Positions 24,811-51,509 of a DNA stretch of 64,000 nucleotides are shown in pieces. The translations under genes were made by a program, and so were the position numbers. The number at the start of each line of letters is the position of its first letter. Position 1 is the first letter of the stretch. The stretch is from a virus: IMG/VR virus record IMGVR_UViG_3300018432_000004, positions 1 through 64,000 of that record; one strand, given 5' to 3'. The notes below the pieces were generated by a model. The model worked only from the letters and a program-made list of their open reading frames with translations. It was not told the origin of the DNA and made no database searches.

Positions 24811-25476
24811 ATGCCGACCATCGTGAACGGCCGACCCCTCGGCGTCGCACAGAACGGCGTCTTCACCGAGGCGAACACAGACCCGATCCCCGGCGGACGG
24901 CTCTGGCCCGAGGCGGCGCTGACGTGGCTCGCGATGCGCGCCGAGTTCATCGCAGACGGCGGCAACCCCGACCACTTCCGGCCCGGCGGCCCGGCCTCGA
25001 GCGCCCGGTCGATCGGCCAGCAGCAGCACTTCTGGAGGAGCCAGCCGCCGCCCGCCGCCCGCCCGGGCACGAGCAACCACGGGTGGGCGATCGCCGTCGA
25101 CATCCCGTTCGCGGACGCGCAGGCGTGGCTCATGCGCAACTGCCAGCGCTTCGGGTGGTCGCACGACGAGGGCGCCCGCGTCGGCGAGGCGTGGCACTAC
25201 CGCTACGTCGGCGCGTCGCCGGCGCTGCTGCGCAAGCTCAAGCGCGACCCGCTCGCCGGCTACACCGCGAGCGAGAAGCGCTGGGTCAAGGAGTACGACC
25301 GCCTCAAGCGCGCGGACCGCGACGCAGCTCGCCGGCGCGTGCTCGTGCACGTCATGCGCGAGCAGCGCAAGCGCATCTGGAAGGCCGCGCAGCCGAAGGC
25401 GCGCGGCGGGGACGGGAAGGGCTGGACGAAGACGCGCCGGCGGCGCTACACGTCGCTGCAGGCGCGCACCACATAG
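24811..25476 (+). CDS. endolysin, M15/VanY-type peptidase with shared C-terminal domain
   Basis: A 221-residue endolysin. SNHGWAIAVDIP places H90 and D97 and GEAWHYRY places E126 and H129, the zinc ligands and catalytic Glu of M15 D-Ala-D-Ala or L-Ala-D-Glu peptidases (SxHxxGxAxD and ExWH). It would cut peptide stems or cross-links of peptidoglycan. From residue 146 to the end (starting DPLAGYTASEKRWVKEYDRL) the chain matches the C-terminal end of the lysozyme at 25882, so this is probably a separate cell-wall-targeting module. No signal peptide is present, so release would need a holin. Confidence 0.9.
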   Translation: MPTIVNGRPLGVAQNGVFTEANTDPIPGGRLWPEAALTWLAMRAEFIADGGNPDHFRPGGPASSARSIGQQQHFWRSQPPPAARPGTSNHGWAIAVDIPFADAQAWLMRNCQRFGWSHDEGARVGEAWHYRYVGASPALLRKLKRDPLAGYTASEKRWVKEYDRLKRADRDAARRRVLVHVMREQRKRIWKAAQPKARGGDGKGWTKTRRRRYTSLQARTT

Positions 25477-25498
25477 GCACCACAACGGAGGGCACCAC

Positions 25499-25885
25499 AT
25501 GCTGAAGGCATTCGCAGGCGCGCGGCCGGACATCACGCCGGCCCAAACCACGGCGATCATCGCGGCCGTCGCGCAGTTCCTTCGCGCGTTCGGGATCTAC
25601 GACGTGTCGCCCGAGCAGCAGGACGCGCTCAACGTCGCGTGCGGGCTGCTGCTCGCCGTCGTCCTGGGCGACGTCGGGATCCGCGCCGCCCGCAACTCCG
25701 CCGACGCGAAGCGCGACGTCGCCGCGCTGACCGCCGCGCCGCACCCGCCGATGAGCGACCCGCCCGAGGACCCCGAGCACGACGAGCTCATGGCCGAGGG
25801 AGAGGACCTCCCCGGCGACGCCGAGGAGTTCGCCGCGCAGCCCGACCAGGCGTCGCGCGTCACCCCCGACGAGCCGCCCGCATGA
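25499..25885 (+). CDS. holin-like small membrane protein
   Basis: This 128-residue protein lies between the two endolysins. It has hydrophobic segments (TTAIIAAVAQFLRAFGIYDV and VACGLLLAVVLGDVGIRAA), only the second of which is a clear membrane helix. The C-terminal half is acidic and Pro-rich and probably cytoplasmic. Size, charge and position fit a holin or antiholin that times endolysin release. The ATG has GGAGGG upstream. No other holin is seen within the lysis region. Confidence 0.6.
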   Translation: MLKAFAGARPDITPAQTTAIIAAVAQFLRAFGIYDVSPEQQDALNVACGLLLAVVLGDVGIRAARNSADAKRDVAALTAAPHPPMSDPPEDPEHDELMAEGEDLPGDAEEFAAQPDQASRVTPDEPPA

Positions 25886-26544
25886 ACCGCAAGCTCTCCG
25901 ACGCGGGCGCGCACCTGATCGAGTCCTTCGAGGGGTTCAGCTCCAAGCCCTACTGGGACGACGATGGCGGCGTCTGGACGATCGGGTTCGGCAGCACCAA
26001 GGGCGTTCGCAAGGACTCGCCGCACATCACGCGCCAGCAGGCCCACGACCGCCTCATGCGCGAGGTCGACGCGACGTACGGCGCCGCGATCAACGCCCTC
26101 GGGCTGCCGCTCTCGCAGCCGCAGTTCGACGCGCTGACGAGCTTCGTCTACAACGTCGGGCCGGGCGGCGTCGCGACCTCGACGGGCGTCGGCCGGGCGC
26201 TGCGCGCCCGCGACTGGCGGACGGCCGCGGACCGCCTGCTCGACTGGGACAAGGCGGGCGGGCGCCGCCTGCTCGGGCTCACCCGTCGCCGCCGGGCCGA
26301 GCGGGCGCTGTTCCTGCGCACGCCGGCGGTCGATCCGCTCGCGGGATACCGGGCCGACGAGAAGCGCTGGATCCGCGAGTACGACGAGCTCAAGCGCGAG
26401 AACCGCAACGAGCGCCGCCGCGAGGTTCTGCGCTCGGTGATGACGACGCGCCGCAAGGCGATCTGGACCGCCGGCGAGAAGGCCGGCTGGGACGTCGCCA
26501 AGCGCCGCCAGCGCTACCGCAGCCTGCTCGCTCGCACGACCTGA
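25882..26544 (+). CDS. endolysin, GH24 lysozyme with shared C-terminal domain
   Basis: A 220-residue lysozyme of the T4 (GH24) type that cleaves the glycan MurNAc-GlcNAc bond. LIESFEGFSSKPYWDDDG gives the catalytic Glu (E17) and the Asp region (D26-D28); TIGFGSTKG is the following strand, and QFDALTSFVYNVGPGG a conserved helix. From residue 151 (DPLAGYRADEKRWIREYDEL) to the end it repeats the C-terminal domain of the M15 endolysin at 24811, including IWTAGEKAGW and the final LLARTT. The ATG overlaps the previous stop. Confidence 0.9.
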   Translation: MNRKLSDAGAHLIESFEGFSSKPYWDDDGGVWTIGFGSTKGVRKDSPHITRQQAHDRLMREVDATYGAAINALGLPLSQPQFDALTSFVYNVGPGGVATSTGVGRALRARDWRTAADRLLDWDKAGGRRLLGLTRRRRAERALFLRTPAVDPLAGYRADEKRWIREYDELKRENRNERRREVLRSVMTTRRKAIWTAGEKAGWDVAKRRQRYRSLLARTT

Positions 26545-50801: not shown

Positions 50802-51208
50802 CGACGAGCACCGCCGCACGGATCCCCGCGCTGCTGGCGCTCGACCAGCGCGTGCTCGACGCCCTCGCCGTCGACCGCGGGCGCCGAGGCGATCGCGTCG
50901 CGCAGCTCGTGCACGGCGCGCCCGGCTGGCGCTGCACGAGCTGCAACCGCGAGGTGCTCGTCGAAGATCGGCTGCGTCGCGCGTGGGGCAAGGGCGAGCC
51001 GATCCGCTGCCTTGTATGTCTCGACCGCGCCCAGCGGGACGCCCGCGCTGTCGGCGGCTGGCTGTCGTTCGTCGACATGCCGCGAACGCTGTACCCCGTA
51101 CTCAGTACAACGCCCGAGCAGCGCCGCGAGATCCGCGAGGTCCTCCGCGGCCTCGAGCGCGTCGACCAGGCGCAGCAGACGGGAGGATGGTGGCGCCGTG
51201 TCCGGTGA
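50798..51208 (+). CDS. hypothetical protein with zinc-like pairs, 136 aa
   Basis: This 136-residue basic protein starts with GTG overlapping the HNH stop. CTSCNREVLV and CLVCLDRAQRD could form a zinc ribbon. A C-terminal helix (REIREVLRGLERVDQAQQTG) follows. Not recognised. Confidence 0.55.
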   Translation: MTTSTAARIPALLALDQRVLDALAVDRGRRGDRVAQLVHGAPGWRCTSCNREVLVEDRLRRAWGKGEPIRCLVCLDRAQRDARAVGGWLSFVDMPRTLYPVLSTTPEQRREIREVLRGLERVDQAQQTGGWWRRVR

Positions 51209-51220
51209 GGGTCGGCGATG

Positions 51221-51247
51221 CCCGCCCCCGGCCATGCTCCGGGCGGG
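51221..51247 (+). terminator. GC hairpin, probable terminator
   Basis: CCCGCCC pairs with GGGCGGG and inner CCGG with CCGG, around a short loop. It ends the operon in the 51209-51365 gap; nothing else clear is seen in this gap. Confidence 0.6.
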
Positions 51248-51365
51248 ATGGGGCTGGGGGCAATCACCCGCCGCTCACATCGCCGCGCCGAACTCTAGCG
51301 CGTTGCGTGCTGCGGCAAACTTGCAGGTCAACGAGGCCGGAGAACCCGGCGGGAAGGTAGGCCAG

Positions 51366-51509
51366 ATGACGGAGGACGAGAAGAACACGCCGGACGTCGA
51401 GACCGGCGACGTCGCCGGCGACGTGAACGTCGGCGCGCCCGAGGAGGTCCTGCGCGGCGGCGAGGACCTTCGCCCCGACGAGGCCGACGACGAGCCCGAC
51501 GACGACTGA
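51366..51509 (+). CDS. small acidic protein, 47 aa
   Basis: The protein has 47 residues and is almost entirely acidic and Val/Pro/Gly (VETGDVAGDVNVGAPEEVLR, DEADDEPDDD). It stands alone between two hairpins. It could be a DNA-mimic-like or regulatory peptide, but this is speculation. Confidence 0.45.
   Translation: MTEDEKNTPDVETGDVAGDVNVGAPEEVLRGGEDLRPDEADDEPDDD

What the first reader, a model, noticed from the sequence alone, without database searches (positions are those of the whole stretch)
24811..26544. Two endolysins of different catalytic type share one C-terminal domain
The M15 peptidase (from residue 146) and GH24 lysozyme (from residue 151) end with the same ~70-residue basic domain: DPLAGYxAxEKRWxxEYDxL near its start, then RRxVLxxxMxxxRKxIW, ending in RYxSLxARTT. 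No known binding module is recognised by eye. It looks like a new cell-wall-targeting domain, perhaps specific for this host group, duplicated together with or swapped between the enzymes.
Basis: partly seen in the sequence, partly recalled or inferred. Interest (0 to 1): 0.68.

Follow-up and report, generated by a model that had tools for sequence, protein, structure and literature searches.

The report
Shared tail on paired phage lysins
Two wall-cutting enzymes of one phage carry the same small, positively charged end-domain that matches no known family; the same arrangement recurs in related phages, nearly always beside a matching negatively charged partner, which suggests a shared and possibly regulated way of aiming both enzymes at the host wall.

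Summary
The VanY-type M15 peptidase (24811-25476) and the GH24 lysozyme (25882-26544) share a C-terminal domain of about 70 residues (44/84 identical, E=1e-16). Alone it matches nothing in Pfam, PHROGs, NCBIfam or 50,697 phage records. It is predicted as a confident three-helix bundle (pLDDT 91) with no Foldseek match in PDB or BFVD.

The pair recurs in Thermoleophilia (pro)phages, including one in Patulibacter minatonensis. A longer, probably related "domain B" replaces it in some lysins. Types A and B occur on M15 and GH24, and each also on a further hydrolase (CHAP-like, Amidase_2). They are rare: 7 of 232 genomes of the order for each profile, weak hits included. Copies within a genome are no more alike than copies between genomes, so this is old mosaicism, not fresh duplication.

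Partner sequences form two families that track domain type A or B. 77 GH24 loci without the domain have none as acidic.

Best reading: a new wall-targeting module with a cognate acidic partner that masks or anchors it. Neither wall binding nor partner binding is shown.

The parts
24811..25476 (+). M15 (VanY-type) peptidase endolysin, 221 aa; catalytic part is about residues 1-140
   Evidence: Pfam VanY E=2.1e-4, below cut-off; orthologues above cut-off; SNHGWAIAVD and EAWH motifs read directly
25246..25473 (+). Copy 1 of shared basic C-terminal domain A (residues 146-221; net charge about +17)
25499..25885 (+). Holin-like ORF, 128 aa, hydrophobic segments (peak hydropathy 2.11), between the two lysins
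   Evidence: weak PHROG holin match E=0.024
25757..25882 (+). Acidic C-terminal tail of the holin-like ORF (42 residues, net charge -14), type A acidic partner with EEFAxxPD
25882..25885 (+). ATGA overlap of the acidic-tail ORF stop and the GH24 start, suggesting coupled translation
25882..26544 (+). GH24 lysozyme (muramidase) endolysin, 220 aa; catalytic part residues 1-146
   Evidence: Pfam PF00959 E=1.5e-33; Foldseek to solved GH24 lysozymes
26332..26541 (+). Copy 2 of shared basic C-terminal domain A (residues 151-220; net charge about +10), predicted three-helix bundle

Best explanation
The shared domain (type A) is an accessory targeting module of phage lysins: a basic three-helix bundle that most likely holds both enzymes on an anionic component of the wall of Thermoleophilia hosts, so that a muramidase and a peptidase act at the same place. 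In the cytoplasm before lysis the basic module is most likely bound by the acidic partner encoded next to it. In this phage that partner is the tail of the holin-like protein, which would also tether the lysins to the membrane; in others it is a small free protein. Shown: the shared domain, its recurrence on several catalytic types, its lineage restriction in the sets searched, and the adjacency and type-matching of acidic partner sequences. Inferred: wall binding, partner binding, and the timing role.
For: Both lysins share the domain in the window, L003, L004 (Patulibacter minatonensis prophage), L010 and G330. Types A or B sit on M15, GH24, a CHAP-like endolysin (PHROG endolysin E=3e-7) and an Amidase_2 (E=2e-13), which is the combinatorial use expected of a targeting module. 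Of 80 GH24 loci nearest in the catalytic part, the only one with the domain was already in the set; nearly all the rest end at the catalytic core. Acidic neighbour: most acidic 40-residue window -11 to -23 in the scored domain cassettes, against -10 to +3 in 77 control loci; G335 and G159 carry one too. Several junctions are ATGA overlaps. Partner similarity beyond composition: type B 13 of 15 pairs z>=4, type A 8 of 28, A against B 0 of 45. A related phage (L069) whose lysins share a different, short tail has an adjacent upstream ORF reaching only -9.
Against: No binding evidence of any kind. Two domain-bearing genes have no acidic neighbour: the G016 M15 (split over two contigs) and the G271 amidase, which has a signal-like N-terminus. 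The type A partner family is weakly conserved (median z 2.85). The controls are mostly phages of other hosts; only L069 is well matched. A basic domain could bind nucleic acid or membrane instead of wall.
Confidence: 0.5

Rival explanations
1. The domain is an ordinary, lineage-specific cell-wall-binding domain, and the acidic ORF or tail is an unrelated feature of the lysis cassette, such as a charged holin tail that tunes timing.
For: Lysins of Gram-positive phages usually carry C-terminal binding domains, and mycobacteriophages have their own unassigned C1/C2 types (PMC3314691). Highly charged cytoplasmic tails are common in actinophage holin-like proteins (PMC9671378).
Against: The acidic element is found as a free ORF as well as a holin tail, and its sequence family follows the lysin domain type.
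Confidence: 0.35
2. The domain does not bind wall at all: it is a docking tag whose only partner is the acidic protein or holin tail, used to keep the lysins inactive or at the membrane until lysis.
For: Matched partner families; precedents for a dedicated LysA-binding protein, Ms6 Gp1 (PMC6116114), and a holin-endolysin interaction, HolAP-LysAP (PMC8879335).
Against: The G271 Amidase_2 and G016 M15 carry the domain without a partner, so it seems to have a use without one.
Confidence: 0.2
3. The basic helices act non-specifically on membranes or nucleic acid (antimicrobial-peptide-like).
For: High net charge (+6 to +17) and helical prediction.
Against: Conserved tryptophans, an invariant GW and SL, and a confident folded bundle point to a specific fold rather than a free amphipathic helix.
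Confidence: 0.1

Closest known systems
Mycobacteriophage LysA C-terminal domains C1 and C2 (Payne and Hatfull 2012, PMC3314691)
   Same: Unassigned C-terminal modules on modular actinophage endolysins, presumed to bind the wall, combined with several catalytic types
   Different: No match when the domain is searched against a phage collection; there the domain sits on one endolysin per phage, here on two separate enzymes
Split lysA genes of Gordonia phages (PMC9671378)
   Same: An M15 peptidase and a glycoside hydrolase as two separate endolysin genes in one phage
   Different: The passages read describe single-domain enzymes and mention no shared C-terminal domain; the hydrolase in the example named there (CaiB) is GH25, here GH24
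Mycobacteriophage Ms6 Gp1, chaperone-like partner of LysA (PMC6116114)
   Same: A dedicated LysA-binding protein encoded in the lysis cassette
   Different: Gp1 binds the first 60 residues of LysA; here the candidate site is the C-terminal domain, partners are strongly acidic, in two sequence families, and can be fused to a holin-like protein
GH24 phage lysozymes and VanY/M15 peptidases
   Same: Catalytic parts
   Different: Nearest GH24 relatives in IMG/VR mostly end right after the catalytic core

Membership tests
GH24 phage lysozyme (PF00959) | Match to the family profile above its curated cut-off | tested here: met
   116.3 bits against 22.3, E=1.5e-33
M15/VanY peptidase (PF02557) | Match above the curated cut-off | tested here: not met
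   Window protein 21.5 bits against 25; orthologues L003 28.0, L012 28.6, G159 35.3 pass
M15/VanY peptidase (PF02557) | Metal-ligand motifs SxHxxGxxxD and ExxWH | tested here: met
   SNHGWAIAVD and GEAWH read in the translation
Known cell-wall-binding domain families | Profile match of the isolated domain | tested here: not met
   No Pfam, PHROG or NCBIfam match at meaningful E for the domain alone
Known cell-wall-binding domain families | Fold match to a solved binding domain | tested here: not met
   Foldseek of the 71-residue model: best E 5.7 in PDB, 2.2 in BFVD
Cell-wall-binding domain (functional sense) | Binds host walls | not testable with these tools
   Needs a binding assay
RyR repeat | Significant profile match over the repeat | tested here: not met
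   Only a 29-residue stretch; single-stretch E 5.6 to 18; no fold match
Ms6 Gp1-type endolysin chaperone | Small partner encoded next to the endolysin gene | tested here: met
   Adjacent acidic ORF or tail in 11 of 11 cassettes, several with ATGA overlap
Ms6 Gp1-type endolysin chaperone | Binds the N-terminal region of LysA and aids export | not testable with these tools
   Interaction assay needed; the proposed site here is C-terminal
Holin | Profile match and transmembrane segments | tested here: inconclusive
   PHROG holin E=0.024; hydropathy peak 2.11

The most novel reading that the evidence does not exclude
A two-part lysin control system: every lysin of the phage carries the same basic docking and wall-targeting domain, and a cognate acidic protein or holin tail of matching type (A with A, B with B) holds the lysins masked or tethered until the holin fires. 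Several different hydrolases would then be released and aimed together through one interchangeable tag.
Probability: 0.4. Interest if true: 0.8.

Novelty: new variant of a known kind. Interest (0 to 1): 0.58.

Why it matters
Phages of Thermoleophilia, a soil lineage with few cultured members, are hardly studied. An interchangeable tail shared by all lysins of a phage, with a matched acidic partner, would show how separate endolysins are aimed and held in check together, and would give a simple marker for lysis genes of this host group in metagenomes. It also makes a clear, testable prediction about direct holin-endolysin contact.

Tried and rejected
RyR repeat: a PDB sequence match at E=8e-4 arises from summing weak stretches; single stretches are E 5.6 to 18 and Foldseek finds no such fold; rejected. 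Weak genome hits at profile positions 11-43 in several Thermoleophilia genomes: the two read in the right frame (L024, L027) are ferritin-like proteins; a G625 hit to domain B lies in a spurious-looking frame; rejected. Domain A and domain B as one family: hhalign aligns only the C-terminal half confidently (E=4.9e-5, probability 68) and not globally; treated as probable, not shown. Phylogeny of domain A: too short to resolve, no starred branch. M15 match to a tape-measure PHROG: read as the shared peptidase module, not a tail function. Scans for the acidic partners in IMG/VR gave only records already in hand; these queries are low in complexity, so this is weak evidence. The C-terminal module of L069 gave no convincing further case in the order. 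Three family searches failed on wrong coordinates and were repeated, and one was run in a wrong frame and repeated.

Full report
The window lies in an IMG/VR virus record of 73,616 bases, about 73% G+C. At 24811-26544 there are three ORFs on the + strand: an M15/VanY-type peptidase (24811-25476), a holin-like ORF (25499-25885) and a GH24 lysozyme (25882-26544). The two enzymes share 44 of 84 residues at their C-termini, E=1e-16, and no other copy of the domain is in the record.

Identity of the domain. Searched alone, it has no match in Pfam, PHROGs or NCBIfam beyond chance, none by tblastn in 50,697 phage records, and none that holds up in PDB sequences. AlphaFold2 from 13 natural sequences gives a three-helix bundle with mean pLDDT 91 and pTM 0.75. 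In the full GH24 protein the same three helices appear. Foldseek finds no similar fold: best E 5.7 in PDB and 2.2 in BFVD. The full GH24 model matches solved lysozymes in its catalytic part, as expected.

Distribution. The M15 plus GH24 pair with the domain on both recurs in three further IMG/VR records (L003, L004, L010) and one genome (G330). L004 is the prophage of Patulibacter minatonensis DSM 18081. The domain profile matched 7 of 232 genomes of the order, weak hits included, and 2 of 396 across the phylum, both from that order. These are lower bounds: the IMG/VR scans use short peptide patterns and the genome search scores only part of its first-look candidates. G237 and G408 share an identical 10,114-base stretch and count once.

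A second type. In L012, L053, L052, G237 and G159 the M15 carries a longer C-terminal domain (B, about 82 residues); in G335 both M15 and GH24 carry it. Profiles of A and B align confidently only over the C-terminal half (E=4.9e-5), so common origin is probable, not shown. Type A also appears as a diverged copy on a CHAP-like endolysin in G016 and type B on an Amidase_2 in G271. Across both types the modules are therefore found with four catalytic classes. A G016 M15 with type A was read across two contigs that share a short overlap, which is an inference.

Swap or duplication. Copies within one genome are 51-59% identical; the window's M15 copy is closest to the M15 copy of L010 (73%) and its GH24 copy to the GH24 copy of L010 (70%). 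The pairing is thus old, with exchange between types. The tree is unresolved. Of the 80 IMG/VR loci nearest in the GH24 catalytic part, only L070, a record already in the set, carries the domain, and nearly all others stop at the core. In one of them, L069 (72% identical core), the M15 and GH24 share a different C-terminal module, VGSDRATGMR. Its M15 is frameshifted in the record. One shared tail per lysin pair therefore occurs with at least three kinds of tail (A, B in G335, and the L069 module), although some cassettes mix A and B.

The acidic partner. Each of 11 independent cassettes (window, L003, L004, L010, L012, L053, L052, G237, G330, G159, G335) has an acidic ORF or tail directly next to a domain-bearing lysin. 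Its most acidic 40-residue window is -11 to -23 in the nine scored; the free partners of G159 and G335 have net charges of -18 and -37. The same measure for 77 GH24 loci without the domain ranges from -10 to +3. In the window, 1 of 54 crude gene calls reaches -13. Several junctions are ATGA overlaps. In the window, L003, L004, L010 and G330 the acidic stretch is the tail of a holin-like ORF; in the others it is a free small ORF. Local alignment against composition-preserving shuffles gives z>=4 for 13 of 15 type B pairs, 8 of 28 type A pairs and 0 of 45 cross-type pairs, so the partner families follow the lysin domain type. The segments compared were chosen by eye, which favours similarity within types. 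Two domain-bearing genes lack such a neighbour: the G016 M15 and the G271 amidase, which has a signal-like N-terminus. The G016 CHAP-like protein has an acidic tail of its own.

Mechanism. The most likely reading is a wall-targeting module shared by both enzymes, kept masked or tethered in the cytoplasm by the acidic partner. The repeated, mosaic use on different hydrolases and the lineage restriction support targeting; the matched partners support a regulated interaction. Precedents exist for each element separately: lineage-specific C-terminal domains in mycobacteriophages (PMC3314691), split endolysins in Gordonia phages (PMC9671378), a LysA-binding protein in Ms6 (PMC6116114) and a holin-endolysin interaction in phage AP1 (PMC8879335). 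In the few papers searched and read I found no report of the combination.

Limits. No binding was or could be tested. The neighbour controls are mostly phages of other hosts. The acidic sequences are low in complexity, and type A partners are only weakly conserved. No metagenome scan was available. That the window's own host is a Thermoleophilia bacterium is inferred from its relatives, not shown.

Noticed in passing
window 51198-51509 (+): A 103-residue ORF with a strongly acidic C-terminal end (most acidic 40-residue window -14), the only such crude gene call in the window outside the lysis region.
   Followed up: no
L069 2485-3825: A related cassette whose M15 (frameshifted in the record) and GH24 share a different short C-terminal module, VGSDRATGMR[YW][YF], followed by a 93-residue ORF that looks by eye like a repeat-type carbohydrate-binding protein.
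   Followed up: partly
L064 6989-9868 (-) (G016:C57): CHAP-like endolysin gene with two diverged N-terminal copies of the domain; the first is interrupted by a TGA stop next to the conserved glycine of the GW motif. LysR- and LexA-like ORFs lie nearby.
   Followed up: partly
L065 and L066: Two genomes of the order (G237, G408) share an identical 10,114-base stretch holding this cassette: the same prophage or a contaminating contig.
   Followed up: partly
L003 1318-2559; L009 3929-4498: Collagen-like glycine-rich (GPxG) protein encoded just upstream of the lysis cassette in two of the phages.
   Followed up: no
L012 4345-4572; L053 3354-3569: A small conserved ORF (about 71-75 aa) ends at the start of the first lysin gene in both type A/B mixed cassettes.
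   Followed up: no
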